A stretch of 64,000 bases of DNA from Zymoseptoria tritici IPO323 (lineage: Eukaryota; Ascomycota; Dothideomycetes; Mycosphaerellales; Mycosphaerellaceae): positions 2,294,001 to 2,358,000 of the forward strand of contig NC_018215.1 in the NCBI RefSeq assembly GCF_000219625.1, given 5' to 3'. Every line of letters begins with the position of its first letter. Position 1 is the stretch's first letter. Shown here piece by piece: positions 7,782 to 56,751 of this stretch. Made by a program: the position numbers and the translations under genes. Below the pieces are notes generated by a model. That model did not search any database, was not told where the DNA came from, and worked only from the letters and a program-made list of their open reading frames with translations.

Positions 7782-8219
7782 GTTTATACGTAATACAACA
7801 TTACTATTTCTCTCCTTAAACTACCGCATTAGTCGCAATACTTAGCTAAACGAAGTCGCAGAACAAGAAGTGACGACTTTATACAAATACAGTTAACGAC
7901 TGAACAGTAACGCTATATATAGGATTAATTTATCCTTAATAAATTCAAATTACTACAATGTAGTTAGATATCTGCCTAAGGGCTAGACCTACATAACTTA
8001 AATTAAAGCAAGGTCTATTAATTATTGGTTAATGACCTAAACCGTAAGCGGTAACCAAATCCCTACAGGGTTAACTTTAATAGTTGTTTAAATTCAAAGG
8101 CACAACGCTGCCTAATTCTCTAACGTTACATTAACGTCTCTTATATACGGCAACTCGCTGTTATCTTTCATCTCGTTATAAACAACTATTAAAGGCAGCA
8201 CGCTGCTAAATTTTTAATC

Positions 8220-9560
8220 GTTACATTTATACCTACGGCAAAAGGACCGAAACCCGGCTAAACGTAAGAAGAATACGAAGCGGTTAAACGCCAGAACGCC
8301 GATAGAGTCGCACTCTACCGCTATAACAAGAAGGTCGGTACAAACCTACAGACTATTAAGTTAAGAATAGGAAAGAAAAAGACCGAACCTGCTATTATTA
8401 GCGAAGGACTTGTAGCAATGCTAAATAAAAATACCGCTTAATAACTACAAAGCGAAGGGGTGTAAGGCGATGAGAATTCTGTACACCTACCAAAAAATCT
8501 AAAATCTAAGCGCCGTACCGAGGCTATAAATACTTTAACTACCGATTATCCTTAAAAGGATATAACATCTGCGGACGCTACATAAACTGTATCTACTAAT
8601 ACATCAGACTTAGACTCTAACAGCAACGTTAAAGAAGAAACTAGCGGAACACTTCTCGCTAAACCCGGCGCCGAACCTAGCGATCTAAGCGATAGCGACG
8701 GCGACGCCGACGACATACTAAACTCCGATCTACTCCCTAAGGGAGTAAGAAGGTCTACCTCGACCTTTTCCGACATACGACCGCGCAACAGACGCGCAAC
8801 AACAACAATAGCGCCTGCTATAAGAGTAGTCGCTAAGCGAATTACTCGCTACTCGCCAGAATAGCGAAAAGTATAAAAGGACATCTGCGGAGACGGTAAA
8901 GTCTTCGACATAGTTCCTCTTCTCGAGGGACTAGAAAACTAGTCGTCCTTCTACGATAACTGTCGAAATGTAGCAAAGCGTATAGGAATAGTTAAATTCT
9001 TCAATATAGGACTACGAGTGCCCCTACCAAACGAGCCTTATATTAAAGGCATAGTTCCAATTGTCCCTAAGAATGTGGACGATATTAATAAATATAACGA
9101 CTATATAATCGCACTAGCCGAGTATAAAAAGGTTAACGAAGTACTCTGTGGCTGCATCGTATCGCGATGTACAAAACGCCTCTCCGACAAGGTTAAGAAC
9201 CTCCTAACAATTAAGGCGGTGCTTATAGTCCTTAAATTAGACTATACACCCTCGGGCGCGTTTATGACAATTCTTAAGTATCGCGAGATATAGGCGTTAA
9301 CTCTCGACTCCGTCGCCGACTACTTAACATTCGTTCTCGAATTTAATCGACTAATCGAGGAGTATAATCGACTGCTATATGCCGCGTAGTATAACGAAGC
9401 GTACAAAATCCTTCTGTTTACCTCTGCTCTTAGACCAACCTTTGCCGACTAAATAGACATAGTTACCTAGACATATAGCATCGCTAGTGCTAGTACCGGT
9501 AGCGACCTTACCTTTAGTAAACTTAAAGGTCGCGCCCGAGCTAAATACTTCTCGATATAA
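8220..9560 (+). pseudogene. Copia gag-like ORF (degraded)
   Basis: One frame runs through this stretch with scattered TAG/TAA codons. Its acidic middle (DLSDSDGDADDILN) is followed near 9018-9293 by a gag-like helical region (PLPNEPYIKGIVPIVPKNVDD, then DYLTFVLEFNRLIEEYN). It precedes the protease and integrase as in copia elements. The zinc knuckle usually found at the end of gag is not clearly recognisable. Confidence 0.7.
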
Positions 9561-9869
9561 AGTTAAGGCGAAATTAGTATAGCGTACGTAGCACGCCTAT
9601 AGAGGTTTAACCTCTAGAAGAGAAAGCGCGACGGACTAAGGCTACCGCGTACGTCGCACATTACGCCCGACTATAATGCGGCAAAACCGCATCTAAGTAG
9701 TTAATTAAAGGGTAACTTTAACGCACCCTGTTTAATTTACACTAGGAACGGCACTCCCTCGTACACTAACGGGGCGTACTTTAGTTAATTTCCTTACCTT
9801 CTAAACAAGGAAGATTCAGGCCGGCCAGACAAGCGTTAGCGCATAGAGCGGCCCTCTCGCCCGCCTTCT

Positions 9870-12812: not shown

Positions 12813-12813
12813 A
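12800..12813. repeat. Target-site duplication of the LINE (left copy)
   Basis: GTTTAAGATAACTA, repeated exactly at 17928-17941. Removing the LINE and one copy restores the copia reading frame across the reverse transcriptase/RNase H border. Confidence 0.93.
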
Positions 12814-12889
12814 ATAATAATAAAGTCTTGTATTGCTGATCTATCCCTCTATGTAACTATGTACAGGGCAAGTAGCCTTCCCTAAATTT

Positions 12890-15800: not shown

Positions 15801-16348
15801 GGTTCTAGGAGGAGCTGCATATCAGCCTGTTCTACCGTCTTAATCAGGTAGTCTGCAGCCTAGTGCTAGTTTGTTGCTGTTTGTGCTCCCTACTTCTAAT
15901 AATGCAGATTGAAGTCCCTAACTAGAATGTGCTAGTTTTCCTTTGTGTCCTAGAGAGCCTTCCTAACTTCCTAGAGGGTACCTAGGTCTCTGCCTGTTAT
16001 TAGGCTACTTGGGTTGTAGCAGTTTAAGATGTGGAGTTTTAGCTCTGTCTGGAGGAGGGTAATCCTAATTAGGTCCTTACAAATTAGCCAGGCTTCCTAG
16101 GTTTCTGGCTGTAGTTCCTTTAATACATATGTAACAACTCTTAGTGTCTCTCCTTCTAGAACTACTGTGTAGTATCCTGGGTATTGCTTAACATTCCCTC
16201 TGGTAGAGGTGTTTACCTATAGTTCCTAGATTGTAACAATGTAGTAGGTTCTTAGGTTCATTTGTTGCATAAATAGGGTTTGGATCTGGTTGCTACTCTT
16301 GTTTGTGTTATACTGTAGGATGTTAAGTTCCTTTAGTGTGTTATTCAT
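12890..16348 (-). pseudogene. LINE ORF2 (endonuclease and reverse transcriptase, degraded)
   Basis: Starts at the ATG at 16348 (MNNTLKELNILQYN), the usual beginning of LINE ORF2. VRDFNLHY and TLNLVF correspond to the endonuclease motifs DFNxH and IDLvF. The reverse transcriptase shows YRLIALLNTISKVLEALVA-like, GIP then stop then GL (GIPQG) and GFVDN at about 14300, where the active site FxDD has lost its second Asp. A late C...HIVIFCP motif matches the C-terminal Cys-His motif of such LINEs. I see no RNase H domain. Stops are TAG/TAA at Gln positions. Confidence 0.88.
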
Positions 16349-16399
16349 CCTGGGTTGGGAAGAAGTAGTCCTTAATGTCGCTCTCTCCTATTTCTAGGT

Positions 16400-17924
16400 C
16401 CTCCTGTCCGGGGTCCTGGGCTTAGTCCTGCTGCTGCATTCCTGCTTGTACCTAGGGTGCTTGTTAGTAGCCCTCCTATGTAGAGCTCCTTAGCATTGTG
16501 TTAATCTTGTTAGCCTGGCTTTGTCCTGCTTTTAGGATAGCTCTTAGTCTCCCTGCTAGGTTCCTAATCTAGTTGCCTTTAGTTTGCTTACTGTCGATAG
16601 GGCTAGCCCTTCTTTTCCTTATGTTTGTTAGTTGCACTATTGTCTAACTCTCCTCCGGCTAGGTTTAGGAGGGTTTCCTATACAATCCCTAGGCTATAAT
16701 GCTCCTAAACTGCCTTGCCTTTAAGATTACTGCTTGCTTAAATTTGTAGGTTGCTAACTAAGATAGGTGCTCCCTCTAGTAGTTGCTATACCTTGCTTTA
16801 GTCTCCTTGCATATGTCTGTTCTATAGTTTCCTAAGCACTTTCTATAGGTTTGTGTGCCTCTATAGTGCTTTGCAATATGTCTAAACTGTCTACAGTTAA
16901 GGCATTATGTTAGTCTCTAGTATAGGTAGAACTCTTCTACAACTAGAATGTTCCCTTAGAGAACTAATCCCTTAGCAACGATTTCCTTTGCCTGTGCTGT
17001 GTTCTAGACATTTAGGATTAAGGAAGAGAAGTCCTTGCCTTCCCTTCCCTTTTTGCTTTTTAGCTATCCTGCTCTAAGGACTTTTAGGTATAGGTAGAGT
17101 CTTCTATTCTCCTCCTTAATTTAAGTGTTTGTTCCCTAACTCTTAGTATTAATAGTCTAGATCTTAACACTATATACTAGCACTTAGAAGAGCTGCACTA
17201 CAGCTTTAGCACTAGGGTATTTGTCCTAGGCCTACTTAAGGTCCCTTTCTAGCCTTTCCTAGGAGCTCTGGCTGTAGGTAAAAACCCTAATGTCTCCGCT
17301 TTCTAGCTTCTTTACTGCTAGCACTACTAGGTCTTTTAACTCCCTAACAATCTCTATGCTTGTCTTCTTCTAGATCTCTTCTCTTTCTGCTAGGTTCTAG
17401 ATCTTAAGGAGGAAGTAGTAGCTTTAGGGTAGGGCTAGCTTTGTGTACACCTAGCTAGATGTCTGTTATTTAGGAAGGGCTGTAGCTTGTGCCTAGGTCT
17501 TTAGCTAGGTAGCCTAGATAGTCTTCTGGATTTCCTAGACTCTCTAGATAACTATCTGCCCTTAGAGAGTGTGCAGGAGGATGGTTTATGCCCTTTAGAG
17601 GAGGGAGAGGAGGAGAGACTTTAGGGTTTCCTCCTAGGGGGAGGATAGGACCTTTGCTACTTCACTAGTTAGTTTTTGCATATCCTTGTTAATTTCTAAC
17701 TGTATTTGCAGCTCCTTAAGGTGCTGCTAATAGCCTTTTAGGCCCTTTAAGTAGTTTAGGGTAGTTAGGGGGGCTTGGGAAGGCGGAGGATAGTCCCCTC
17801 CCCCTTCCTTTACTCCCTAACCTCCCTAAATGTTTTGCCTCCTCTAAGGGTAGACTGCTGCGTGTTAAGAGGCCTGGAGGCCTCTCTGTTCGTGTGGTGG
17901 CTGCGTTGGCATGATTTCCGACAT
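16400..17924 (-). pseudogene. LINE ORF1 (gag-like, CCHC zinc knuckle, degraded)
   Basis: Starts MSEIMPTQPPHEQRG on the minus strand at 17924. A coiled, Gln/Leu-rich section follows (LKELQIQLEINKDMQKL). Near 16850-16910 the frame reads CLNCRQFRHIAKHYRG, a CX2CX4HX4C knuckle whose last Cys has become Tyr (TGC to TAC). Numerous TAG/TAA stops. Confidence 0.8.
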
Positions 17925-17927
17925 TAT

Positions 17928-17941
17928 GTTTAAGATAACTA
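17928..17941. repeat. Target-site duplication of the LINE (right copy)
   Basis: Exact copy of the 14-mer at 12800-12813, directly after the LINE 5' end. Confidence 0.93.
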
Positions 17942-18706
17942 CGGCCAACGCCTAATTAACGCCTATACGGATAGACATTAAATACGAACTACCGCTAACG
18001 GACTACGTCTGCCTAAATAAACAAAGAAAGTAGTATCAATCCGTAGTCGGTTTATTAATGTACGGGATGCTCGGAATACGTCCTAACCTCGTATACGCTG
18101 TATCGGTCGCTAGCCGCTTCTGTTACAATCCTACAAAACAACACGCGGAACTAGTATAACGCATCTTCCGGTATATTAAAGGATTAGTTAACCGCGCCCT
18201 AGAATTCGACGGCACCGACCTATTTAGAGGCTATACCGATGCTAAATTCGCAGGTAATCCCTTTACGAGCAAGTTAGTCGGGGGCTACATATTTATGCTC
18301 GGTAGCTCTACTATTAGCTAGTTATCGAAGAAACAAACTACCGTCGTACTATTAACAGCGGAAGCCGAATACACCGCTCTACACTACGCGGGCAAGGAAG
18401 TAGCCTAGCTAAAGGATATACTAACATACTTCGGCTTACTACACGGTAGTAATCCGGTTCTTATCTACGTCGACAATTAAAGCGCTATTGCTATCGCTAA
18501 GAATCCTAAGCACTACAACCGGACGAAGCATATTCGCGTATAGTTCTACTTTATTCGACAGCTTATCGAAGACAAGCGAGTCGAGGTGTAGCACATCCCC
18601 GGCATTTATTAAGTCGCCGACATCCTTACGAAGGCACTCGCCCTAGGCGAATTCAACCGGCAATTATCCGCGCTCGGAATAATAACGACGGCAATTAATT
18701 AAGGTA
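17942..18706 (+). pseudogene. Copia pol, 3' part: RNase H (degraded)
   Basis: After the LINE the same coding frame resumes. It shows VGLLMYGMLGIRPNL, then YTDAKFAGNPFTSK, then LLTAEAEYTALHYAGKEVAQ-like and VDN.SAIAIAKNP, the ordered landmarks of copia RNase H. It ends with HIRVQFYFIRQLI and ADILTKAL, the classic end of copia pol. Stops are TAG/TAA at Gln positions. Confidence 0.88.
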
Positions 18707-19079
18707 ACATCCTTGCATAAACTCTGCAAACTAACACAATAGTAGGTCTATTAAGCGAGAACGACTATAAAAGCTACGCTATACGTTAGACTCCTTAGTC
18801 CGGTTTATTAAATACGGGCCGTCTACTTTTATAACCTTGTAATTGTCTTAAAAAGCACAAATACCGTATGACCTGGTAACCGTCTTAAAAAGTACCTATA
18901 CATATATATACATACACACACATTAAACTACACATCAAACCCTACATTAAACTACGCGCCAGTAATAGCAACCTAACTAACAGGTCTCGCGAAAGCGCGA
19001 GAAGAAGTACGAAGATACGGAGCGAGTGTATACTAACACTAGGCATAGTTTTACGAACAGTAACTAAATTCGAACTCTA

Positions 19080-19700
19080 ACGCCGGACTCTGGATTGACG
19101 AAGAGGACATAGACGATAACATTTACGACGCGAGCTACCTACAACGCATAGTAGAACTTTACGTTAGTAATGTCCGCTTCTTACGACCCGGACTTCTCGT
19201 AGAGAAAGTCCCTATCCTTAGTCTACTAGATCCTTAATTAAAAGTCAACTAGACAACCCGAATACTTCGTTTTATTTATTCCCTTAGACCGTCCTTTAAA
19301 GAAGTGTTTACCTATCCCGAGCGGTATCCTCTTAAAATTGTTTAAGCCTAACAATTTAACGAGGGCTTTAATACAAATCGACTACGCTAGAGACAGGCTT
19401 GCTAGGGTTAGATAAACTTGTTTATCGTTAACATTATTAAGGACAGAATTCCGGACTACCTATATTAATACATCGTTTAATATCTACTAGCAAAGGATCT
19501 CTTTACTAGAATCGACTAGATATAATACGACAACGAAGCCTAGACTAATAGGAAGAGGTCAGCTATCGCCGCAGCGATAATAACTAGACGGATTTAGGAA
19601 TTAAGAAGAGATAGAAATAAAGCGGCGTTAGCACTTAGTAGAAACAGGGGAAACGATAACCTTAGTAAACAGTTAGCTGCACTCTTTTTCCCTTAATAAG
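19080..19700 (+). pseudogene. Extra ORF between copia RNase H and the 3' LTR (unknown)
   Basis: A single frame reads with coding-like composition through about 620 bp after the end of pol, interrupted only by TAG/TAA. It reads DEEDIDDNIYDASYLQRIV, later KDRIPDYLY and later RRDRNKAALALSRNRGN. The middle resembles a gag-type helical domain in style, but I cannot name a family. Copia elements normally end coding at RNase H, so this is either a third gene, a captured host fragment or remains of another element. Confidence 0.5.
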
Positions 19701-19804
19701 GTTTTTAACGAGGCAGCGGGAATATTACTTAGTAGGAGTTAATAGCGTTTAGTAGGAGTTTACAGTTAATTACATAGGATATTAGTACACTCATCGAGTA
19801 GGAG

Positions 19805-19914
19805 TGTTAAATATTAGACACGTGTTCATAGGTCCGATATCGGTACCAATCTGTACTTAGTTAAGGCCATGGCCCACCCGTAGATCAACAATCTATGGCT
19901 CATGACTTTCAACA
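19805..19914 (+). repeat. 3' LTR of the copia element
   Basis: 110 bp, beginning TGTTAAATATTAGAC and ending GACTTTCAACA. Comparing both LTRs, the ancestral ends were TGTTGA...TCAACA, a 6-bp inverted terminus. Followed directly by target duplication TGGAG at 19915-19919. Confidence 0.93.
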
Positions 19915-19919
19915 TGGAG

Positions 19920-20243
19920 AACTCCGGGAGATGTGATGCCCCTCACCCCCACACTCTGCTGTCGTCCAGCGCAATCCATTCCCGTTGCGAATCTGGACCA
20001 AGTGGACCCCTCCTGGCTTGCTCCACAGGCCGAGGCAAGCGCAGGTACAGCATCATACGGGATGCAGTGCGACGACAGCTCCAGGCCTAGATCCGGTCGA
20101 CGGATATTAGTTTTCCTGACGTCCGCCGCGACCATTCTTTCCGTCTCCCACACAGTCTTCACCCGTACCAACCGCTTCGATCTTTTTTACCAGGAACAAT
20201 CGACAGAACCCATTCCCGCGATACTCTCGAATCGACCACCATC
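19920..20243. other. 5' flank of the small conserved gene
   Basis: 324 bp between the copia target duplication and the ATG at 20244. The sequence just before the ATG (CGACCACCATCATGG) has a favourable start context. The copia insertion may therefore sit in or beside the original promoter. Confidence 0.5.
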
Positions 20244-33214: not shown

Positions 33215-36200
33215 CGCCTTGTTATAAAAGCTCTAATTCGTATCCGTCTATTAAATCCTAGGATAACATAATAAGTCCAGGTGTTAGGTCGGTCGCTGCC
33301 GCTCGTTATAAGTAAGGGTCCGTCCTTAGGTCCGGAAGCTCTATACTAACAGACAATAAGGGCTAGTCGGCCTGTACAATCTGTTGTCCTTTAACTACTA
33401 CGTTCTTATTAAAGCGTTCTAGACAGCTAATATTCTTAACTAGAGTTACTAGGTTCTTAACACCTATAGCATATAGGTCTATAGCGTAAAACTAGGCTAC
33501 TACGTTAGGATCCGGATCGACTTCTTTGGTCTTTAACGTCTCGTCCTAGTATGCCGCTGCGACAGCATGCACCTCTTTAACTGATTTTAGGGACGTGTGC
33601 TTTGTGTTTGTAGACTCCCCGAAGCTAGCCTCTATAACCTCTCGCAGATAGCTAGTATGCATTGCTAAGAGGGTTGCCTCTTCTAGTTAATTCTCGACGT
33701 CGAATGTCCTATTATAGCGGCTGCTAATAAGAGTCTTTAGGTATCGATTAAGGAACTCGTTTGCCCGGTTAATCTCGAACTAACTATCCTCGGCACCCGC
33801 TATGTTTACAAACCCGTTCGCTAGCATCGCTCTTTGCAGCACCGGATCTAACGCCTTAGAATCGGTTAGCTATTTTATCTATAGTATAATAAAAGCGTAA
33901 TTCTTGTGGCTGCGTGCATAGAAGATTAGGATATAGCAGTTAACGACTCGACGCAGTAGGCTAATATCCGCATATTTAACAGCCCGGCTAAGTATATAAT
34001 ACATCTCGACGATATGCAGGAATCGGACATAGTTTCTCTGCTCTTCGTTTCTATCGATCCGGGCAGCTGCCTTTTTAGTCGCCTTTGCCTTCTTCCCCTG
34101 CTGCTTCTTCGAGGAGTACGAATTCTTTGCCTTCTAAGTGTTAGCTTTAATAGCATCGGGTTCTAGGCAACGAGCAGATAGCAAGAACACCTTCTTATAC
34201 ACCTTTCCGACTAGACCTATAAAGCCGTCGGCTAACAGCGCCTAGATGTAGTTAGATATAACATGCCTCTTAGGAACTACCGGGTCGATTTCTTTATACA
34301 CGAATGCTAGCACCCTTGCATTAAAGCTGTCGAGTGTTAGTCGTTCTAGGTGGCTATGCGGCGCGTAAAATGATAGACATATCTTCCGCTCTATTATCTC
34401 CCGGTATACTAGGAGTAACGATTTAGCCCGGCAGCCCTCTCTGCCGTTAAAATTGTTCTCGATTGCCTATATTAGACACATCTTAAGGTAGAAGAGCCTA
34501 GGCAATAGCAGTACCTATTGCATGCGGTTAAAATCGTCCTTATTCTCCTGGGACTCCTTTAGCTACGTCCGCATGTTGCTTACGGAGAGCTGATCGCTGT
34601 ACATTAGTAGAATATACCTAGAGGGGTTATACGCACTACCCGTAAAGTCCTCGACTAGCCGTCGAATACGTAGAATGTCGTCCTTAGCATGTTCTCCGTC
34701 CGTAGGTAGTCGATTACGAGTGCTAGGGGGCTAGTCTCGACTAGTAGGAGGCGGATTCCGTAGCGTAGGGAGGCGGTTCTACAAGGTAGGCAGCTAGTAT
34801 TATAAGCTAGGAGGCTAACTCTACGAGGTAAGCAGCTAATATTGCAAGCTAGGAGGGCAGCTCTGCAAGGTAGGCGGCTAATATTGCGAGCTAGGAGGGC
34901 AGCTTTGCGAGGTAGGCGGCTAATATTATAAGCTAGGAGGGCAGCTTTGCGAGGTAGGCGGCTAATATTACGAGGAGGGGGGCTGAATTTATGTGCCGGG
35001 ACGATAGTTATTAGCTATAGGCGACTGATTTGGAGGAGCGGGCACTTAGGTCTGCCTAGTAGAGGGCTAGGTCTAAGTAGTAGGAGGGCGTTCGTAGCAG
35101 TTAAAATTACTAGGGCGGCAGATCTAGTCCGCGTTCTGTCCTTTAACAGCCTGTTCGTATAATTCCCTAAGCTTAAGTTACTCCTCTAGTATATTCTCTA
35201 TAACGTTATAAGTGCCTTTGGTCGTGCCCTCTTGTTCGTAGATTAGATTTATAGTAGTACTAATAGTTTTCTGCTTTACTATACGATTAAAAGCCGGGAA
35301 TTAAGGGAAGCCCTTTACTTTAGTCTAGTCGATGCCGTTAGGGTTAGCTTCGCTACCGGTAGCAGTATCTCTACTAATACTAGGGTCCTAGCTAATATTC
35401 TTCTTCTTCTTCGGTTTCTTTTTTAAAACAGAATCGTTAGATTCGACACCGAATGCCTGTGCAACGTCGGCTAGATACACCCTTGCTATAGCGCTTGCGA
35501 TTAAGTAGAGTAAGATCGCCTTCTGCTAAGCGTCGTGCTAGTTGCCCGGGCTATCTAGGATGTCTTGTAGCTAAAGCGGCCTGTCCTCTCGGAATAGTTC
35601 TTTCTTTAGGCCTAAGCATAGTACCTCGATGCTCTTAAACTATTTTACGGTAGTAACATGTTTTAGGACGTCCCGCCTGCCGAAGCTATGCTAGCCGACG
35701 CGGGCAAAGTAGTCTAGGTTGTCGAATATACTATAGGTAAGGTTAGACCGGCCGAATGCCTTAATACAACCGGCAGCTAGGTCGTAGAGCATCCGGTTAC
35801 AACGGTATATACTCTTTAGGTATCCGCATATACCTAGTCTAGCTAGGACCGCAAGAACGCGACGTTTGACACCTTAACTCTGCAGGTACACTCCTAACTG
35901 CATAGCGAACTAGTTCCCAGATCGAGGATGTCTTATGCGCAGAAGTATACTAGAAATAAGACTAATGCGGCGGAGCATTAACTTAGAGAGATCCTAAGTT
36001 GCCGGCAAGCCTAAGAGCTCCTTTACGAGAGCCTAAATAGATAGGACGTACTAACCTATAGCTACTACCGCGTCTCTATAATCTAGTTCTTCTGCGGGTA
36101 GTTTTCTGTCCTAAGACCTGAATTCCTATATAGACTTAGCAACAGAACCTATATATGCTAATATTACTTACCTTCCGTCCCTTTAGATCCTCGAGCTCTT

Positions 36201-40853: not shown

Positions 40854-42758
40854 TCAATCCGCCTTCCCACTCTTGCCACCCCTCCCTCGACTGACCGCCG
40901 TCGCTCCGTCAAAATAACTCGCCCCTGAGCTTCCTCCTCCAGCCTGACCATCCACGCCAACGCTCCCCTGCCTTCCCCTTCCCAGCTCATCTAGATCGTC
41001 GTCCTCTCCTCCAATCTCAAACTCGTCCGTCATCTCAATCAGATCTCCCACTCCACCCGCTCCCTTTCCAGGCGTGCCTACACTCGCTCTCGCTGCCCTT
41101 CTCTCTGCCGAAGGCGTCGTGACGCTCTTTGTTGCTAATCGCCTCACCCAGGATTCAATCGCGCCGCCGACATTTTCAAGATTCATGTGCATACCACCTG
41201 TACCACCTCCGCCGTGCGGATATGCAGGTGTATGTGACCCGGACGTCAGAGGAGTAGGCTCGTCGGTATAGAGCGGAACTTCCGGATGGTAGAGAGATTG
41301 CTGATTGCGAGGCGGAGCAACGTCGGGGAGATGTTTCGCGAAGATTTTGTTCAGCGAGTCTTGTGCTGGACCTGGGCATCGAACGGATTGGGACATTGTG
41401 CCGACGCCGCCGGGTCCGGAAAGGTAGGACGGGAAGTAGCCGTTGTTCGCGTTGGAGGGGCGCCGGGTGTGGGGAGGTCGGTTCTGCCGTGAAGGGGAGG
41501 GTGGCGGATGACCTGCATCGGATGTATTGCGGTTGAGATCGAGAGATGTGGATGGTGTCTCAGCATCGGACCAGGCGTTACTTTTCCGGCGTGCGGGAGG
41601 GAAGTATCCTAACGCTCGACGTGGTAGACGGGCGATTTCGGTGGGTTTGGTGTTGCCTGGGAGGAGCACCCACGAGTCGTGATGCCAATTCGCTTCGGTA
41701 TCGACACTTGACCCGGCGTGAGAGTGAGTGGAAGTTGATTGAGAACGATCTCGTCCGGTAGTGAGCAGGCCAGGATTAGGCTGTGCCTGTGTGGGTGTGG
41801 GGACCTCCTCCGCCTGCATGCTCGACAAGCTCTCGCTCTCTGCACCCAGCAGATCCAACCCATCTGACGTCGGCTTGCCCTTCACACCACACGCGTCCAC
41901 GGGTAATATCAATATCTGCCGCGTTTGCACTGTATCATTCGGCCACATGCGATTCGCTTTCCGCAAAGCGTTCGCAGAGATGTTATACCGTATCGTGATG
42001 CCTGCCAGAGTATCGTTCTTCGTCACATGGTGCACATAAACCAGCGCTTCTCGATCCTCCTCTCCTCCCGGCGGTGCTGAAACTGAATTGCGATCGTCTG
42101 AAAGCCGGCGTTTGAACTTTCCCATTGCATCAGTCGTGGCATAACTGCTTTCTTGCCTTGTCAACATGTCCATCCTCTTTTGCGCTCGCAATGCCGCTGC
42201 TTGCTCTTCGCGGGTGCCGGAGCCGATGCTGCTCGATTGCGGGTGGGATGTGGGTGCGGAGGGTCCCCATGAACTCGACTGAGGGTTGGTGGACTGTGAT
42301 CTCACGCTGTGCAGCTTTCCTTGCGTTCGCCTCGATCGGTGTCGATTTGTCGTATCGGTTGCAGCAAGATCGCTCCCCAACAAATCCGAAGCTAGGCCTT
42401 GAAGTGTGCTCCATGAACTCCCCCATAGTCCTGCTAGTGAAGGTGAACTATCCCGTGTTGTCCTCTGACTGCCTGCCACTCCTCTCTTGACCGGTGATCT
42501 CGTCGAACCCAAGCCATATTGCCGCGGTGTTCCTGTCCCTGATCTTTGCGGATGTGCTGAAGGTATGGGTGAGGCAGGTCGACTGCCATATGGAGAAGGT
42601 AGGGGTGATGCGATACGTGTCAGGTTGGAGTGGTCGGGATCGAAGCTGGTCTCGTCGCCCTCGTCCAGACCGGATATCAGACGTTTGCCTCGCGGTCGCA
42701 AACTCGAGGAGGAGGCATGGGCGGAGCTCGTGCGGACATTGCTGGCGCTCATCGCCAA
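40854..42758 (-). CDS. Intracellular LysM-domain protein
   Basis: 634 residues, one exon, start MAMSASNVRTSSAHASS. No signal peptide or membrane segment is visible. One LysM module lies at about 240-290: VYVHHVTKNDTLAGITIRY (the conserved start of LysM), then NISANALRKANRMWPNDTV and RQILILPV. The rest is Ser/Pro-rich and low in predicted structure, with likely phosphorylation-prone stretches. Secreted fungal LysM effectors bind chitin; this one lacks secretion signals and resembles instead the cytosolic single-LysM proteins of eukaryotes, whose ligand is unclear. It is divergent from the SDR gene, sharing a 944-bp upstream region. Confidence 0.88.
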   Translation of the reverse strand: MAMSASNVRTSSAHASSSSLRPRGKRLISGLDEGDETSFDPDHSNLTRIASPLPSPYGSRPASPIPSAHPQRSGTGTPRQYGLGSTRSPVKRGVAGSQRTTRDSSPSLAGLWGSSWSTLQGLASDLLGSDLAATDTTNRHRSRRTQGKLHSVRSQSTNPQSSSWGPSAPTSHPQSSSIGSGTREEQAAALRAQKRMDMLTRQESSYATTDAMGKFKRRLSDDRNSVSAPPGGEEDREALVYVHHVTKNDTLAGITIRYNISANALRKANRMWPNDTVQTRQILILPVDACGVKGKPTSDGLDLLGAESESLSSMQAEEVPTPTQAQPNPGLLTTGRDRSQSTSTHSHAGSSVDTEANWHHDSWVLLPGNTKPTEIARLPRRALGYFPPARRKSNAWSDAETPSTSLDLNRNTSDAGHPPPSPSRQNRPPHTRRPSNANNGYFPSYLSGPGGVGTMSQSVRCPGPAQDSLNKIFAKHLPDVAPPRNQQSLYHPEVPLYTDEPTPLTSGSHTPAYPHGGGGTGGMHMNLENVGGAIESWVRRLATKSVTTPSAERRAARASVGTPGKGAGGVGDLIEMTDEFEIGGEDDDLDELGRGRQGSVGVDGQAGGGSSGASYFDGATAVSRGRGGKSGKAD

Positions 42759-43702
42759 CTACGCAGCGTCGCAGGGGGTGGGGCATATGGTGGGATGTAG
42801 GGCCAGAGACAACACAGTTGGTCGTCTGGAAGCGGCTCCTATAACCGGCGCATTACGTTCAGTCGGTCGGAGACACGGAGAGTGGAGAATGTGGTCCCTG
42901 AACGAACGGCGTGTTGGAAGAGTACGAAGGCGCGTTTTATGGCATGTGGTCGGATCTTACGGTATTGATACGGCGCTCGAGCTGCAGCGTCATGGGTCAG
43001 AGAGAGGTCCAGTCCGGTCTGCGCCGGCGTTTGAACCTCGAACTCAAAGCTCTCCTTTACAACAACCTCACTTCATGTTGTGCCATCACGACGAGTGTAC
43101 ACGGACTGCAAGTACAGACGAAGACTTGCCTTCTTGTTATCTTGAATATCATGGTGTCCGGGCCGCGTGTTGCTGTGTCAGCAAGCAAAGCACTGTTTTG
43201 GCCAGAATGGCGGCCCATTCGGATTCCTTTGATGAGACGTGTTTACTCGGCGGAGAGCAGCAATCGTGGCGAGGTCGGGCAGCGCGCTCAACACACCGCG
43301 ATCAGTAACGGCCGCTCGGAATGACACTGGCGACAAGGTTTGACATCTCTTGCACTCGGACAAGCTGACTGATGGGTGAAATGTCGGATTCCCAAGATGT
43401 TGGACACGAAGCTAGGAAGCAACACCGACCCTAAGTGGAGGGCGAAGCTTCGCATGTGAGAGAGCACGCACAATGTTCCACTTCTTGCATGTGAAAGATA
43501 CGGTACTGCTGATCTTCACAATCTTCACCATCGCCGTGTCACCTTGATCTTCTGGGCAGTCACCACTCGATCACCATGACGTACCCGTTCCATGGCAAAC
43601 ATTCTCGCATTCGCCATTTGCATCGAAATTGACTTCCGAAAAACACTCCAGACTTTGACAATAACCACGATCAATCCTCAAGCAACCTTCGTCAGAAGCA
43701 CG
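42759..43702. promoter_or_regulatory. Divergent upstream region shared by the LysM and SDR genes
   Basis: 944 bp between two outward-facing start codons. Several short frames occur but none is convincing. No clear TATA box recognised. Confidence 0.45.
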
Positions 43703-44646
43703 ATGGTTCAAACAGCCATCATCTCCGGCGGCGCTCGCGGCATCGGCCGCTGCCTCACTCGCCGCTTCCTTGAAAGAGGCTACAAAGTCTACGTTCTCGA
43801 CATCGACAAGGAAGAGCTCTATCACACCACTCACTCGCATCTGAAAGGCTACACCGATACTCAAGCTCTGGGATCAAGTATCTGCGACCTGCGCAACGTC
43901 GACGACATTTATGACAAAGTCGGGAAGGCGGCCGTATTTCTTGGCGGTCACATCGATGTACTGGTCAACAACGGAGGGATAGCAAGTCCGCAGTGGAGAG
44001 ATGGGAAGACGATGTTCGATCGCGAGACGGCCAAGGAGTGGCAGGCGTGAGTCCAGCGTCCTTCTTCATCTTGGTCACATGCTAACAATCCGACCAAGCT
44101 ACGTCGAAACCAACCTCACAGCGCCCTTCATCGTCTCTCAAGCCTGTCTGCCATACATGGAACGCAAAGGCGAAGGTCTCCACGGACCCGTCCAAAACGA
44201 CGGCCACTCCAACGCCGGACCCTGCATCATCCACATCGGTTCCTTCCGTGCTCACCGTAGCGACCCGAACCAGGAAGGCTACGCATCCACCAAATCCGGA
44301 CTTCTGGGACTCATGCACAGTATGGCGATCAGTCTGCAGCCGAGGGGCATTCGCGTCAATTTGGTGGCTCCTGGACGAATCAAAGTCGCGCACGAGTCCA
44401 AGGCGGGAGATGAGGCAGGAATGGACTGGGAGGAGCAGAACGGGGAGAAGGATGTGGCGGATCATCCTACCAATCGCGCTGGACGGCCTAAAGATATTGC
44501 TGATGCTACCGAGTGAGTTGAGTCTGAAAGAATGTGTAGAAAGATGTGTGTGCTAATGTGTTGTTGTCAGATATCTTGTGAATGCTGGCTTTGTCACGGG
44601 ACAGGAGATCACCGTGGACGGAGGAGCAACAAGGGTGAAGAAGTGA
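43703..44646 (+). CDS. Short-chain dehydrogenase/reductase (classical SDR)
   Basis: Exons 43703-44046, 44099-44512 and 44571-44646 with two GT-AG introns (52 and 58 bp) give 277 residues. The ATG at 43703 is chosen over the in-frame one at 43592 because MVQTAIISGG starts directly at the Rossmann fold and has A at -3. GGARGIG (about 10-16) binds the cofactor, and DID at the end of the second strand suggests NAD over NADP. VNNGG replaces the usual NNAG. Ser in IGSF and the YASTK motif supply the catalytic Ser, Tyr and Lys. GFVTGQEITVDGG is the conserved C-terminal block. The substrate cannot be told; relatives include 3-oxoacyl reductase-like and sugar or polyol dehydrogenases. Confidence 0.92.
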
Positions 44647-44994
44647 GGTGCAGAGCGTCGACCATGCTGAGTTTCAAGAACGAACGGCGTCATGCTATCG
44701 AGCGGTCTGATAGCAGGAACGAATAAACAGACCGAAGACGTGCTTCCCAAACACTCCGAGCTCAGTCATGGCAAGCCATATTACCAAACCCAACCATCGA
44801 TTCGATGCTCAGTGGAAAGCCTGTTGCGGGCATTGTCAGTTCCGAGGTCTATCGCGGTCGTCCAAGGATTATGCTAATCAAGGGGAAAGACGTACCGCGC
44901 GAGCTGCGAGAGGAGCACGGATCGGCTGGTAACCGCCGTTGTGGCCGGAATCCTAAGTGGAAGGACTGTGGCCGTCATGCTGGAGTTAATGGGA
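44647..44994. other. Short spacer between convergent genes
   Basis: 348 bp between the SDR stop and the stop of the tandem-exon gene. Nothing recognised. Confidence 0.45.
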
Positions 44995-45983
44995 TTAGTC
45001 ATATGAAAACGTGAACAATTCAGCATAGTTCCGAGGACATACTGGATCGCGAGCAGCGAGAGCACGTGGTGAGCCGCCGTCACCGCCATGGCCACCGTGG
45101 CCTCGGCCGTCTGGATTGTTTGGATCGTTCCAGACAGGTCCCTGAGGATCTGGGTCAGTCATACAGGTCTTGCCAACATGCGTTGGAAGGACTTACGCCG
45201 GCGATACGAGCAGCGAGAGCGCGGAGTGGGCCACCGCCGCCGTGGCTGGGAGGATATCCATTGTTGGGGTCAAACGGGTGTGGCGTGGGGTTATTAACCG
45301 TTTGCATTCTAGGAAGTTGCATCAGTTATGAACAAAACGATATGTCCAAGATGCGTTGGAAGGACTTACGCCAGCTACACGAGCAGCGAGAGCGCGGAGT
45401 GGGCCACCGCCGCCGTGGCTGGGAGGAGATCCATTGTTGGGAAACGGCTTTGGCGTGGGGTTATAACCGTTTGCATTCTAGGAGGTTGCATCAGTTATGA
45501 ACAAAACGATATGTCCATGATGCGTTGGAAGGACTTACGCCAGCTACACGAGCAGCGAGAGCGCGGAGTGGGCCACCGCCGCCGTGGCTGGGAGGAGATC
45601 CATTGTTGGGAAACGGCTTTGGCGTGGGGTTATAACCGTTTGCATTCTAGGAGGTTGCATCAGTTATGAACAAAACGATATGTCCATGATGCGTTGGAAG
45701 GACTTACGCCAGCTACACGAGCAGCGAGAGCGCGGAGCGGGCCACCGCCGCCGTGGCCGGGATTTTTATCTCCATTGCTGGGGATATACGGCCTTGGCGT
45801 GGGGTTATAACCGTTTGCATTCTAGGAAGTTGTATCAGTTATGGACAAAACGATATGTCAAGATGCGGCGGAGGGACCTACGCCATCTACACGAGCTTCG
45901 AGAGCAGCAGCGGGTGGTCCGGTTGGAGCTGCGTAAGCAGCGGCGATGAAGATCGCGAGCGCGGAGGCACCGGTAAGCTTCAT
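44995..45983 (-). CDS. Secreted protein made of tandemly duplicated exons (unknown function)
   Basis: Six exons on the minus strand: 45983-45882, 45821-45708, 45646-45539, 45477-45370, 45308-45197, 45141-44995; introns of 60, 61, 61, 61 and 55 bp, all GT-AG. Exon 1 encodes a signal peptide (MKLTGASALAIFIAAAYA then APTGPP) and ends LEARVDG. Exons 2-4 each encode one 36-38-residue repeat starting NANGYNPTP, with a Gly-rich GHGGGGP core and ending LRALAARVAG. Exon 5 is the same repeat with a 1-nt shift that gives TAA after NANG. Exon 6 encodes a last diverged repeat (GHGGHGGDGGSPRALAARDP) and a short tail. I do not recognise the family. No dibasic Kex2 sites separate the units, though RALAAR recurs. 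It might be a cell-wall, effector-like or processed-peptide precursor. As read, the product ends at about 148 residues. Confidence 0.75.
45197..45881. repeat. 169-bp tandem exon-intron repeat
   Basis: The unit is one 108-bp exon plus its 61-bp intron. The copies 45370-45538 and 45539-45707 are identical over 169 bp. The flanking copies (45197-45369 and 45708-45881) are about 173-174 bp and diverged by small indels and substitutions. Identity of the introns shows very recent duplication or gene conversion. Confidence 0.95.
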
Positions 45984-50441: not shown

Positions 50442-52224
50442 GGTCGAATTATGTGCTGTTATGCTGTGGTGATCTCGCGCGTAATCTCATGGATGGTCCG
50501 GTTGGTGACCTCGTTGGTGACCTGGTCGATGATGAAGAGGAAGGAAGGAAGGAAGGCGAAAGTTTTATGAAGGTGTTCTTTCTCGGGCTGTTGTGTCAGT
50601 GAATGGGTCCATTCCCGGAACAGACATGAATTTAGGAGAAACGTGAGGACGAAGCAAACAGCTTTTCGTGAAGCGTGACCAGCCCAGGGACGACGCGTAG
50701 GCTTCTTCTTGGAAATCTTGAGGTCAGCAGACGATGGAGGCGCAGCTCCCGGAATAGGATTATGTTCGCAAATTCATCTCGAAGATGCTCTGCTTGGCAC
50801 GTCTTCGAATCAGTCTATCCCTCACTGTCCGACAAGAAGTGCTGTTATTCAGTCGCAAGTGTAAGGTACCTCCAAAGGAGAGTGCTGTACAGAAGCGTCA
50901 TAGCGCCGATCTACATATCGGGCCCCCAAAATCGCAGGGGTGTGTTCCTGGGGTCAACATTATTAGCCGGACGACAAGTTGTAACAAAGACAACCACTGT
51001 ACATGTACACGTACATTAGCAGGACGATTCAGTAGACGTGCGGGGACACGTGCAGGTAGTCTGACAGGAAGGAAAAGAAGGCGTGCCGGTACGTGTACAG
51101 GTAGGCGCCTAGGTAGGTAGGCGTACAGGTAGGCGTACAGGTAGGCGTACAGGTAGGCGTACAGGTAGGCGTACAGGTAGGCGTACAGGTAGGCGTACAG
51201 GTAGGCGTACAGGTAACTTAGTAGGCATGCTTCATAGCCGTGCAGATAAGCTGGCAAGACATGCTAGATAACCGTGCGGATAAGTTAGTGGACACGCTGT
51301 ACTGTCGTGCATCTGGCCAGGCATGCTAAATTGTCGTACTTGGCAAGACGTGCTAACAGTCGTGTTCGTATGCTCATACACTCTGGTGTTACCCGGTACC
51401 TGGGATGCTGCCCTGTTCTCTCAAAAGCCAAATCGCATACCACTGTACATTAGACTACAACTCTTACACGATGCAAGGTGTCGTTCTTCGAGTCTTCATG
51501 GTGATGGTTTGCTCAGCAGCCAGGCCAGTGCAGCCACCGAATGAACGAAATCTCTCATCCCATCTGCCGCGAGATCCCGATCTACGGACGCCAACGGGAA
51601 GGCCATTCAGATCTGTCACCTGTCTCGGCTTTGTTCCTTGTCTCAGTGCGACTTGAGGACTCGACTCTCACATTTACCTTGTACTTGAGGCCTCAATCTG
51701 CTCTCCCCAATACTGATGAATTCACATGTTTACCACTCCGCTCCTCTTCTCGCATTCCGTCTTCATATTTGACAAAAACACATCGTTCCGCATCAGCCGC
51801 TCCGTCAGATCTTGCGTGTAGGCAGCATTTGGCTTTTCCTAGCTCCAACCTTCGCAACGTCGAGAAGGGCTGGCCGCGTTCCATGGCGCCTCTGCCGGAA
51901 ACCGACGTAAATCCCAGGTACCGGCAGCGTTCTTCGAAGTTCGCGCGCTGAGCGATAGATGCGACAACAACAAGACCTCATGAGATTTCACCCACTATCG
52001 CAGTCTCTCGCTTTGCCTACAGAATCTACCTATCGACCCCTCCCACGCCCTGCCCCGAGGCCTGCGCTTCCGATCAACTCCGGCACATATCTGAAACTGG
52101 AACCTCTAGAGATCGCCAGACCGCCACGATTTTAAGAGGTGGATGAAGAGCGTACACAATCACACGGAGCCGGCGTCAAGCGCCTGGGGACGTAGGGGAG
52201 CGCATTGCGATCCATATTTTCGCC
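50442..52224. promoter_or_regulatory. Divergent upstream region of the WLM protease and the histidine kinase
   Basis: 1.8 kb between two outward-facing start codons. It contains the 12-bp minisatellite at 51117-51212 and, around it, looser repeats of CGTGC...GGCA(A/T)G(A/G)C(A/G)TGCTA. Several short frames are not supported. The long length fits a regulated promoter for the kinase. Confidence 0.45.
51117..51212. repeat. 12-bp minisatellite, eight copies
   Basis: GTAGGCGTACAG occurs eight times without a mismatch, with degenerate units on the left. On the minus strand it would read as a YLYA repeat, but this is a by-product of the period. Confidence 0.95.
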
Positions 52225-55200
52225 ATGGATCCTCCTACACGTCCCGCCGAGGTATCACGAGCACGAGTCTCTTTTAACGACAGCCCGCAACACAGTCCGC
52301 CGCCGCCCTCAGTGGACGGAATACAGGATGAGTCCGCAGAGCGAGATGGCTACTTCTCCGCCGACGACAGTGGATCGGATCGATGGGAAGAGGGCACTGC
52401 ATCACCGCCAGCCCGCAGACGAGCGTCGCTCGCCATTCGCATCCCGCCCAACCAAATGAAGACGGAATTGGCCTTCGCCGCGATGCAATACCTTCCAATG
52501 CCAGTGATGGTGCTCTCCTCCACAAAGAACGTCATCATGGCCAACGAAGCGATGGGCAGACTGCTGGGCATCGATCCGGAGTACGAAGACGAAACGACCG
52601 AGACCGATTTGCTCGGCCAGCTGGACGGTCGAGAAGAGAAGAGCGCGACCGAAACACTATACGGAGCGACAATGGCGGAACTAGGCGTGGACTTGCTGCA
52701 GAACGGCAATGCAGTATTCGTAGCTTGGGAGGACTTTCTGGAGACTCTTGTGGACGATGCATCTCGAGCGCAAAGTCGCGGCACGAACCTGAACACACAT
52801 CACGAAAGACGCCTAGATCATGACAGTACACCAACAGGAACGCGCGGACGCTCGACTTCAACCAGCACGAGTCGCTCCAACAAGTTTAGTGACCAGAGAG
52901 GGTCCCGTACAGAGGTTCACGATTCCGTGATGGATGTGGTGTTCTCTACACATCGAGATCCCAAGACAGGATTGCCCCTGGCTTCACGAACCGAGATGTC
53001 CGATCATGTACAAGCTCGGATGATTGTGTCGGTGTGGGCTACTGAAGACAGCCAGTACTTCACATTGACTTTCACAGCTGCACAGTCCGATTCGTCGTCG
53101 AGCGCCTCGACTTCTACCAAAACCACCAGTCGCACGGTGTCTCGCACGGCAACCTCGTATTCCAACAGCACCCATTCTAGCGCCAGTTCTCGGTCTGGAG
53201 CGCGGAGATCCGCGGTACAAAGCCCTCCAGCAGCGAGTTATACGGCCAGCCCAACGACCATGCCACGGATGGATTTTCCTCCTCGCGGCCCACCTGGCAA
53301 AAGCTCTGTCGCGGCACCTTCCATGTTCAGCAAGACGACTAAGCTGAAGGAAGCTCTGCTGAATAGCATGTCCATACCCGCATACGCCATGTGGAAAGAC
53401 GAATCCTTTGGCATTCCCAACATCGCTGCCGTCAAACTATTATATCCGTGGATCGAGGACGGCAAATTCGACTCTAGCGAGCAGGCTCGTGACTTTCTTT
53501 CTCACTACGTGCTTTATCGACCCGACTTCTCGGAAGAAATACCTCTTGCCGAGTTTCCGATCATGCGGCTCATGAAGGAGCAGCAAGGATTTGAAGGCTA
53601 CCGCGTCGGCATGTAAGTAAAGTACAGGGCGGAGAGCACCTCCAGCTTGGTTCAAACCTCCCTGAACACTTCCCTAACCTGCTTTCCACTTGTAGGTACA
53701 GCGTCAAAGACGGTAGCCAGGTTCTATACGACACCAGCGGAGAGCCTCTGCTCGACGAAAAGGGAGAATTCATCGGTGGGCTGGTCCTATTCCACGACGT
53801 TACAACTTTTACACGCACGATCGATCAACAACAACAGGTGAACGAACGACAGTTTGAGAATATTTGCAATATGATTCCCCAGATGATCTGGACGACGACT
53901 CCAGAGGGAGCGCATAATTACTACAGCGACAGATGGTACAGCTACACAGGGCTGTCTGTAGAGGAGAGCGCAGGCGAGGGATGGCTGAATGCATTTGATG
54001 ATGATGATTTGCAGGTCGCGGAGCCCAAGTGGCGACACAGCCTGGCCACGGGAGATGAATACCGCACCGAATACCGCTGTAAATCAGCCAGCGGAGAATG
54101 GAGATGGATGCTGGGAAGTGCAACACCCATGAAAGACGAGAACGGAGAGATTTTGCAATGGTTCGGCACCTGCACCGACATCCACGAGCAAGTCATCGCC
54201 CGCGAGGAAGCCAAGCAAACCCGCGCCCAGCTCGAGCGAGTCATGGAACACGGCGAGGTCACGCTCTGGTCCGTCGACCGGGACTTCACAGTCACCTTCT
54301 CCGAAGGCCGCTCCATGCACTCCGCGAGCGACAGGGAAACGCTACCCTCCAACGACCGCTCCCAGGTCGTCAGCCTCAATATGTGGAACGTCCTTGCATC
54401 CCAAGGTCGCGCTTCCGAGAGGTCGAATTTCGAGGGACCGATGCGGGAGATCCTGGCGGGTCGGTCGACCAGCGAGACGATCGAGTCGCAGATTGCGACT
54501 AACAAGCGCTGGTATCGCACGAGATTGTATCCGCTGTTGAGGCAGGAGAGGTTTGGAGGGATTGAGGGCGAGGCTTTTGTGGACGGTGTGGTAGGTGTGA
54601 GTATGGACGTCACGGAGGTGAGGAAGGCGGCGGAAGAGGTGGCGCAGAGGGATCGCGAGAATGCGCATTTATTGGCGCAAAGTGTGGCTGCGAAGGAGGC
54701 GAGTAAGATGAAGAGTCAGTTCTTGGCGAATATGTCGCATGAGGTAAGTCTGTACAGCAGGAGGTCTGTTGCATGGCTGGGGGTCTTCTCTTGGGCTGTG
54801 CTAGCAGGTCTCGGCTTTCATCCGCAACTTTTGGTTCTGTTCAATGCTGACTCCTTTATTGATACGTACGCCGATCGCTGGGGTTATAGGCATGTCCGAA
54901 TTATTGCTGGACGACGACCCGGGAGAGTTGAGCAAAGAGCAAAGAGAATGCGCCGAAAACATCCAGCGAAGCGCAAACGGGCTGCTCACGGTTATCAACG
55001 ATATTCTCGACTTCTCCAAGGTCGAAAGCGGTCGTCTGGACATTGAGGAAGTGCAGTTCGATCTATCGGTTGTCATTCGTGATGTCAACAAGATGCTGAG
55101 CTTCGCCGCGGAACGAAAGGGACTCAAATACGTGGACGATATCCAACAGCTCAAGTCATGGAAAGTCATGGGCGATCCTGGACGATTGCGGCAGGTCATC

Positions 55201-56751
55201 ACCAACCTCTTGACGAATGCCATTAAGTTCACCACCGAGGGCAGTGTCACAATGAAGGTCAAGACTCTAAAAGAGACTGATGACATGGTCCAACTCCAGT
55301 TCGAAGTTCAGGACACCGGCATTGGAATCGAAGAGGAGGTGCGCCAGAAGTTGTTCAAGCCTTTCTCGCAAGCCGATAGCTCGACCGCCCGACGCTTTGG
55401 CGGGACGGGTCTTGGGCTGACCATCAGCAAGAACCTCGTCGAACTCATGCGCGGCACCATTTCCCTCGAATCCACTCTAGGCGTCGGTACGACAGCAACG
55501 TTTTCCATACCCTTCCATAAAGCGCCCTACCAATCGGACAACTCGCCCCTGGTCGACCTCAACCTCACCACTATCCCCGACCGCTTGCAATCTGACCTCT
55601 CCGTGTCCCGCCACGGTTCCGAACACAATAGTGGACCACCTACACCTACCCTACCACGGTCTAACAGCAATAACCAAACGCACCAACGACAACCATCCAA
55701 TGTCGTGATCCCCAAGACCTCCGCTCCGTGGTCCAACACTTCCGCTGAGGATCAGGAATTAAGCGATGAAGACCGTAACGCCACCGAAGTCCTTGTGGTA
55801 GAAGATAACCCCATCAACCAACAAATCGCCCTTAAAACCATCAGAAAGCTCGGCTTTCCCGTCCGCGCTGTCTGGAACGGCAAAGAAGCTCTCGACTACC
55901 TGGCCTCCCCATCCTCCTCCCAACCTCGGCCGGACATCATCCTCATGGACGTCCAAATGCCCATCATGGACGGCTACAAGGCGACCTACACTATCCGCAA
56001 CTCACCGCTCTTCACCTCCTCTCCTCTTCTGCAATCCACTCCTATCGTCGCCATGACCGCGTCCGCAATCCAAGGCGACCGGGAAAAATGCCAAGCCGCA
56101 GGAATGGACGACTACCTCGCCAAGCCCGTCAAGAAACCCCATCTTGAGAAAATGCTCGTACGCTGGGCGATTGAAGGGAGGAAGAAGCGCGCCGAAATCG
56201 CGGCGAACCCCCGTGGCAAGACATTGGCTGTGCGTCCGCCGATTGATCGTGCCAGGAGCTCTTTCGCGAGTGATGAGCGCAGTGTGGGCAGTTTGCAGAC
56301 GCCACAGGAGCAGATTGAAGGACAGCTGGAACGCATGGAGTATGCGCACCGAGCGGCGTTTGAGCAGAGCGCTGAGTCGGAAGGCGATCGAGGATTGAGA
56401 CAGCTACGCGCTGAAGAACAAGCTATTGCTTTACGGGATCACGAACTGATTGAAGCCGGCGAAGATCCGAAGACCAAAGTAGGGAGGAACGTTGGCGAAG
56501 ACGATGAACGACTCGAAAGCGAGGGAAAGGGCGAGGCTCTGACGACGGAGAATATGCATAAATTTGCGCGGGACGCGAGGCTGAGCAAACTAATAGATGG
56601 TGCTGCGGATGCAGATGGAGATGCGAGCAGCAGTCTGGCGAATAATGCGGCGGAAACGGAGACGGTCAGCGTGGCGCCTGCTTCTGCTGCGCCACCACCA
56701 GTGTTGGTCGGCACGGCCGCGAAGAGGGCAAGTGTGGTGGAGCGGCGATGA
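52225..56751 (+). CDS. Hybrid histidine kinase with PAS domains and receiver domain
   Basis: Exons 52225-53612 and 53696-54743 and a third ending 56751; intron 1 is 83 bp (GTAAGT...TGTAG). About 1,441 residues, no membrane segment. N-terminal PAS-like region near 80-110 (LPMPVMVLSSTKNVIMANEA), a second near 370-500, and a clear PAS/PAC near 520-630 (PQMIWTTTPEGAHNYYSDRW ... WFGTCTDIHEQV). H-box SQFLANMSHE with phospho-accepting His about 811, then IRTPIAG after intron 2. N-box NLLTNAIKFT, G-boxes DTGIGI and GGTGLGL. Receiver VLVVEDNPINQQ with phospho-Asp in ILMDVQMP (about 1173) and Lys in YLAKPVK. A cytosolic sensor feeding the HPt-response regulator relay is expected. Intron 2 lacks an AG at the position that restores SHEIRTP; using the nearest AG (54806-54807) adds 18 residues inside the H-box helix. 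Confidence 0.93.

What the first reader, a model, noticed from the sequence alone, without database searches (positions are those of the whole stretch)
44995..45983. Secreted protein grown by tandem exon-intron duplication
Each repeat of the protein is exactly one exon, and the duplicated unit includes the intron. Two neighbouring 169-bp units are identical, so the array is expanding or being homogenised now. A signal peptide heads the gene. Such a gene can change its number of peptide units by unequal crossing-over or exon skipping. Open-frame searches miss it, because every intron carries stops and the other strand offers long false frames. I know of no described family with this repeat.
Basis: partly seen in the sequence, partly recalled or inferred. 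Interest (0 to 1): 0.9.

Follow-up and report, generated by a model that had tools for sequence, protein, structure and literature searches.

The report
Fungal secreted gene of repeated exons
A small predicted secreted-protein gene in what is most likely the wheat leaf-blotch fungus has grown by copying one exon together with its intron, and published gene models from two other isolates suggest that the number and intactness of the copies differ between isolates.

Summary
The array is real and lies on the minus strand. Exons 2-4 are 114, 108 and 108 nt, phase 0, with 60-61 nt introns; 219 bp repeat without mismatch at offset 169. The genome is very likely Zymoseptoria tritici: the only homologues found are unnamed proteins of isolates 3D7 and 3D1.

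Exon 5 here is 112 nt and hits a stop after four codons, so the six-exon protein is not encoded. 3D7's model ends at the same residues; 3D1's reads through a relative of this exon but is frame-shifted in exon 2 and adds a seventh exon, ending at 44953. The models show fewer units than this genome, which suggests but does not prove unit-number variation.

Each readable repeat exon ends 1-3 residues after L[A/E]AR (6 of 6), an LxxR Kex2-type motif. My best reading is a species-restricted precursor giving one peptide per exon. It fails the dibasic KEP definition, and decay is a serious rival. Exon-plus-intron arrays are known elsewhere (SmPoMuc), so this is a new variant of a known kind.

The parts
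45882..45983 (-). Exon 1, 102 nt: signal-peptide-like leader and first LEAR site (MKLTGASALAIFIAAAYAAPTGPPAAALEARVDG)
   Evidence: identical in P0001 and P0002
45822..45881 (-). Intron 1, 60 nt; 87-90% identical to introns 2-4
45708..45821 (-). Exon 2, repeat unit, 114 nt, phase 0
   Evidence: in frame in P0001 (3D7), read in a shifted frame from residue 54 in P0002 (3D1)
45647..45707 (-). Intron 2, 61 nt
45539..45646 (-). Exon 3, repeat unit, 108 nt
45478..45538 (-). Intron 3, 61 nt, identical to intron 2
45370..45477 (-). Exon 4, repeat unit, 108 nt, identical to exon 3
45309..45369 (-). Intron 4, 61 nt, 59/61 to introns 2 and 3
45197..45308 (-). Exon 5, repeat unit, 112 nt: out of frame here, stop after NANG; the 3D7 model ends in the same residues, the 3D1 model reads through an intact relative
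45142..45196 (-). Intron 5, 55 nt
   Evidence: border agrees with P0002
45043..45141 (-). Exon 6, diverged repeat unit, 99 nt (GPVWNDPNNPDGRGHGGHGGDGGSPRALAARDP)
   Evidence: 33/33 residues in P0002
44980..45042 (-). Intron 6, 63 nt, donor GTATGT
44953..44979 (-).
   Evidence: 8/8 residues in P0002
44896..44952 (-). Possible older repeat unit behind the stop (DSGHNGGYQPIRAPLAARA, then GTACGT); reached only if the alternative acceptor at the TAG is used
   Evidence: neither P0001 nor P0002 contains it
45173..45905 (.). The 169-bp tandem array

Best explanation
It is a protein-coding gene on the minus strand, found only in Zymoseptoria tritici with these tools. It encodes a small, cysteine-free, Gly/Pro/Ala/Asn-rich protein made of a signal-peptide-like leader and several units of about 36 residues, each unit being one phase-0 exon. 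The unit multiplied with its intron, most likely by unequal recombination between copies, and the two newest copies have not yet diverged. Each readable unit ends in L[A/E]AR, an LxxR Kex2-type motif, so the likely product is a precursor that the secretory pathway cuts into one peptide per exon. The gene is in flux: this allele and the 3D7 model stop inside exon 5, whereas the 3D1 model reads a relative of exon 5 but is shifted in exon 2. Shown here: the array, its identity, exon phases, the broken exon 5, LxxR in each readable unit, and existing gene models with several matching borders. Inferred: use of the splice sites in this isolate, secretion, cleavage, unit-number variation in DNA, unequal exchange, and any role in infection.
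For: Exon lengths 102, 114, 108, 108, 99 and 27 are multiples of 3, while introns are 55-63 nt. Both indels between exons 2 and 3 are of three bases (2 of 2). P0001 (3D7) and P0002 (3D1) share exon 1 and the exon 1/2 border; P0002 agrees with the exon 5/6 and 6/7 borders. The 3D1 genome was annotated with in planta RNA-seq intron hints. LEAR or LAAR stands 1-3 residues before the exon end in 6 of 6 readable repeat-type exons (E1, E2, E3, E4, E6 and the unit behind the stop), including exon 6, only 59-65% like exons 2-5. Exon 5 was left out because it is out of frame here; its relative in the 3D1 model has LAAR. LxxR after residue 18 is more frequent than in shuffles (3 against a mean of 0.35 in P0001 and 0.43 in P0002, p 0.0016 and 0.0052), though the copies are not independent. 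KR, RR or LxxR is the Kex2 motif used in PMC10942635 (passage). De novo tandem-repeat variants (38 of 1464 rearrangements) were seen in a Z. tritici pedigree (PMC8192914, passage).
Against: No transcript, peptide or DNA of another isolate was examined. Exon 5 is out of frame here. The 3D1 model keeps frame past exon 2 only by leaving at what is a GTGTAG in this genome, and loses the LAAR of that exon; a long-read indel error there is possible (inference). The 3D7 model enters its second unit 30 nt further in than proposed here. No protein of 1A5 or 1E4, annotated in the same study, nor of IPO323, was returned. Six of 7 changed codons between exons 2 and 3 are replacements: no sign of purifying selection on the middle of the unit. 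The short exon 7 has no LxxR, and there is no dibasic Kex2 site and no cysteine in P0001 or P0002.
Confidence: 0.55

Rival explanations
1. A decaying gene: a once useful secreted repeat protein is being lost, and the array now drifts as a minisatellite with leftover splice sites. (The odds of the best reading and the first two rivals overlap and are not meant to sum to 1.)
For: Exon 5 is broken here and, by its model, in 3D7; exon 2 is shifted in the 3D1 model. Exons diverge about as much as introns (E2/E3 92%, I1/I2 87%). No homologue outside the species was found.
Against: Donor, acceptor and a branch-like site are present in each of the six introns. Exons 1-4, 6 and 7 are in frame. The exon 1 protein is identical in all three isolates, and exons 6 and 7 in this genome and 3D1.
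Confidence: 0.27
2. A secreted repeat protein that works whole (cell-surface or apoplastic, disordered), not cut into peptides; LxxR is only a by-product of the duplicated exon end.
For: The exon ends are the part shared by exon 1, the units and exon 6, so common descent alone could keep LAAR. No dibasic site in P0001 or P0002.
Against: LAAR survives in exon 6, which is otherwise 59-65% like exons 2-5, and in the unit behind the stop.
Confidence: 0.35
3. The coding strand is the plus strand and the minus-strand exon model is a coincidence.
For: Plus-strand frames are open over the units (two of three frames in each of exons 2-6), with ORFs up to 144 aa.
Against: A 169-bp unit is not a multiple of 3, so plus frames rotate from copy to copy. 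The 144-aa plus ORF has no homologue (76 candidates, none at E <= 10), whereas two minus-strand models exist.
Confidence: 0.03
4. The introns are introner-like elements inserted at the same place in each unit, not duplicated with the exons.
For: Introns 1-4 are 87-100% identical to each other.
Against: A 31-base intron core occurs 4 times in the genome at up to 3 mismatches, all 4 in this array, and exons and introns are alike to a similar degree between copies.
Confidence: 0.02

Closest known systems
Kex2-processed repeat proteins (KEPs; Umemura 2020, PMC7329392, passages seen)
   Same: Signal-peptide-like leader and three or more tandem repeats of 8 aa or more, with a Kex2-type motif at each unit end
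   Different: The sites are LxxR; none is KR, KK, RK or RR, which the KEP screen required. Here each unit is its own exon. The one Zymoseptoria core peptide named in the passages seen is YVIP, not this.
SmPoMuc polymorphic mucins of Schistosoma mansoni (PMC2576457, passages seen)
   Same: An exon with its flanking introns is a tandem array in a parasite protein gene; unit number varies, and splicing can drop exons without frame loss
   Different: A multigene family with units of about 1 kb and a 27-bp exon; here a single gene with 169-bp units and exons of about 110 bp. No sequence comparison was run.
Kex2-processed pro-domain (K2PP) effectors (PMC10942635, passages seen)
   Same: The LxxR form of the Kex2 motif
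   Different: Avr1 and Avr3, named there as members, are cysteine-rich and folded; this protein has no cysteine and repeats the site once per exon
[quoted passage not shown]
   Same: Repeat proteins of plant-associated fungi, e.g. Cin1
   Different: The review's main text has 0 occurrences of words starting 'intron' or 'exon'; Cin1 repeats are folded helices, while this sequence is Gly/Pro-rich

Membership tests
KEP (Umemura 2020 screen) | 3 or more tandem repeats of 8 aa or more, none longer than 100 aa | tested here: met
   Exons 2-4 give units of 38, 36 and 36 aa; definition
KEP (Umemura 2020 screen) | Repeats lie between KR, KK, RK or RR sites | tested here: not met
   No dibasic pair in P0001 or P0002, and none visible in the exon translations; definition
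KEP | N-terminal signal peptide | tested here: inconclusive
   Hydropathy peak 2.33 at residues 6-16; no predictor available
K2PP effector | Kex2 motif KR, RR or LxxR after the signal peptide | tested here: met
   LEAR at residues 28-31 and LAAR in each later readable unit; cleavage not tested
K2PP effector | Cysteine-rich mature protein (stated for Avr1 and Avr3; not stated as defining in the passages seen) | tested here: not met
   0 Cys in P0001 and P0002
Dikaritin-type RiPP precursor | UstYa genes in the same cluster (recalled) | tested here: not met
   61 UstYa matches listed in the genome; the nearest is 348 kb away at C4:1990582-1990896. The list is a lower bound.
SmPoMuc-like exon-intron array | Exon plus flanking intron repeated in tandem | tested here: met
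SmPoMuc-like exon-intron array | Unit number varies between individuals in DNA | not testable with these tools
   Only protein models of two other isolates were available
Introner-like element | Near-identical introns in different genes (recalled) | tested here: not met
   4 of 4 genomic matches of the intron core lie in this array

The most novel reading that the evidence does not exclude
A fungal 'one exon, one peptide' precursor with LxxR instead of dibasic sites, whose peptide number is set by meiotic unequal exchange of exon-intron units, and whose phase-0 exons let a frame-broken unit be dropped by splicing without losing the rest.
Probability: 0.22. Interest if true: 0.72.

Novelty: new variant of a known kind. 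Interest (0 to 1): 0.5.

Why it matters
If the units are translated and cut, peptide precursors with LxxR sites split over exons would escape screens that need dibasic sites or unspliced repeats. A gene with identical neighbouring units, in a fungus with pedigrees and several assembled isolates, would make it possible to measure how tandem exon arrays gain, lose and tolerate broken units.

Tried and rejected
Plus-strand gene: the 144-aa ORF has no homologue (76 candidates); shorter plus ORFs were not searched. Introner-like origin: 4 of 4 matches lie in the array. Paralogues: three protein queries (up to E 10) and an 821-bp DNA query hit only this locus; these tools score the best candidates only. 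RiPP cluster: nearest listed UstYa match 348 kb away. Known families: P0001 and P0002 gave 0 Pfam matches and 0 NCBIfam matches (that library is for bacteria and archaea); P0002 gave 0 solved structures (P0001 not run). Neighbours: 8 of 10 ORFs given to Pfam matched (LysM, short-chain dehydrogenase twice, DEDDh, WLM twice, PAS, histidine kinase), 2 had no match. Literature: ten searches listed no paper that I recognised as describing this gene or a fungal tandem exon-intron array; two of them returned nothing; of listed papers I saw titles and abstract starts, except where passages or sections are cited by call. Supplementary files could not be read. Not done: structure prediction and fold search, because a two-sequence alignment of a probably disordered protein would say little.

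Full report
What is there. The window lies at C4:2294001-2358000 of a 39.69-Mb, 21-contig genome. The only homologues found in a database of about 5.8 billion proteins are unnamed products of Zymoseptoria tritici isolates 3D7 (P0001, 102 aa) and 3D1 (P0002, 146 aa). In both searches only the 7991 candidates sharing most words were scored, and only proteins of 0.55-1.75 times the query length can be candidates.

Anatomy. Reading the minus strand from ATG 45983: exon 1 is 102 nt, exon 2 114, exons 3 and 4 108 each, exon 5 112, exon 6 99 and exon 7 27 nt with its stop; introns are 60, 61, 61, 61, 55 and 63 nt. Donors, branch-like CTGAT, CTGAC or CTAAT sites and AG acceptors are present in each of the six introns. 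For comparison, the RNA-seq-based IPO323 annotation has an average intron of 91.6 bp and 2.54 exons per gene (PMC4502367, passage), so these introns are short and the exon number high.

Duplication. Bases 45350-45568 equal 45519-45737 (219 bp, offset 169). Exons 3 and 4 and introns 2 and 3 are identical. Exon 5 matches exon 4 at 102/108 and intron 4 matches intron 3 at 59/61. Exon 2 matches exon 3 at 99/108 and intron 1 matches intron 2 at 52/60. Exon 6 is 59-65% to exons 2-5. Exon and intron thus travel together, and intron 1 with the end of exon 1 looks like part of the same ancestral unit. A unit-like stretch with LAAR and a GTACGT donor lies behind the stop at 44896-44952. TRF over the window and 20 further 10-kb stretches (264 kb) found no other array of period 60 or more with at least 3 copies.

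Frame. Exons 1-4, 6 and 7 are multiples of three and in phase 0. Exon 5 is 112 nt and stops after NANG. The 3D7 model ends in ...RVAGNANG, so the stop is unlikely to be a sequencing error of this assembly alone (inference). The 3D1 model reads an intact relative of exon 5 (NANGYNPTPHPFDPNNG...RIAG), then exon 6 (33/33) and exon 7 (8/8). Its exon 5 relative is a mosaic by comparison with this genome: HPFDPNNG matches exon 5, while SPPSHGGGGPLRALAAR matches exons 3 and 4. Its exon 2 runs in a shifted frame from residue 54 and ends where this genome reads GTGTAG, an unusual donor, so that border may be forced by the annotator. It lacks the PKPFPNNG type of unit. The 3D7 model has one such unit, entered 30 nt further in, where this genome has two. 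The simplest reading is different unit numbers and different broken units in three isolates, but a model that skips exons would look the same, and no DNA of the other isolates could be read here.

Evidence of expression is indirect. The 3D1 annotation used BRAKER with intron hints from infected wheat at four time points, plus IPO323 coding sequences (PMC5765654, section 18). I did not see reads at this locus.

Mechanism. In 6 of 6 readable repeat-type exons (E1, E2, E3, E4, E6 and the unit behind the stop) L[A/E]AR stands 1-3 residues before the exon end. Exon 5 was set aside as out of frame, and the short exon 7 has none. In the models, P0001 and P0002 each have three LxxR sites after residue 18, against shuffle means of 0.35 and 0.43; the shifted exon 2 of 3D1 has lost its site. 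KR, RR or LxxR is named as the Kex2 motif in PMC10942635 (passage; the original work is not held). I infer a precursor cut into peptides of about 36 residues. Against this, the copies share descent, so conservation of LAAR counts only through the old units (exon 1, exon 6, the unit behind the stop). P0001 and P0002 have no Cys and no dibasic pair, so the protein fails the KEP screen of PMC7329392 (passage). Between exons 2 and 3, 6 of 7 changed codons are replacements: the middle of the unit is free to vary or is being diversified, and seven codons cannot tell which.

Turnover. Unequal exchange is the natural mechanism for identical 169-bp neighbours (inference). PMC8192914 reports 38 tandem-repeat variants among 1464 de novo rearrangements in a Z. 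tritici pedigree (passage); whether this locus is among them is unknown.

Known kinds. Exon-plus-intron tandem arrays are described for SmPoMuc, where splicing can drop exons without frame loss, and the same paper cites spider silk genes (PMC2576457, passages). The review of repeat-containing effectors has no occurrence of intron or exon in its main text. The architecture is therefore a known kind. The fungal, single-gene, LxxR-per-exon form was not recognised in the listings of the ten paper searches named under Tried and rejected.

Verdict. Real, recent and, as far as searched, restricted to Z. tritici; not an intact gene as proposed. Its function is inferred only.

Noticed in passing
51079-51215: 12-bp minisatellite (AGGCGTACAGGT), 11 copies, in a stretch with no ORF of 150 aa or more
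   Followed up: partly
34784-34971: 42-bp tandem repeat, 4.5 copies, 87% matches
   Followed up: no
8001-20000: GC falls to 0.41-0.43 and no ORF of 200 aa or more; perhaps a mutated transposon region
   Followed up: no
43592-44516: Two overlapping ORFs of a short-chain dehydrogenase gene, convergent with the repeat gene
   Followed up: partly
40854-42758: 634-aa ORF with one LysM domain
   Followed up: no
53838-56751: PAS and histidine kinase - response regulator ORFs, a likely hybrid sensor kinase
   Followed up: no
whole genome (G000): 61 exon-wise matches to UstYa (PF11807), suggesting many RiPP-type oxidase genes
   Followed up: no
44896-44979: The stop TAG of exon 7 is itself a possible acceptor that would extend the protein in frame by a further LAAR unit
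   Followed up: partly
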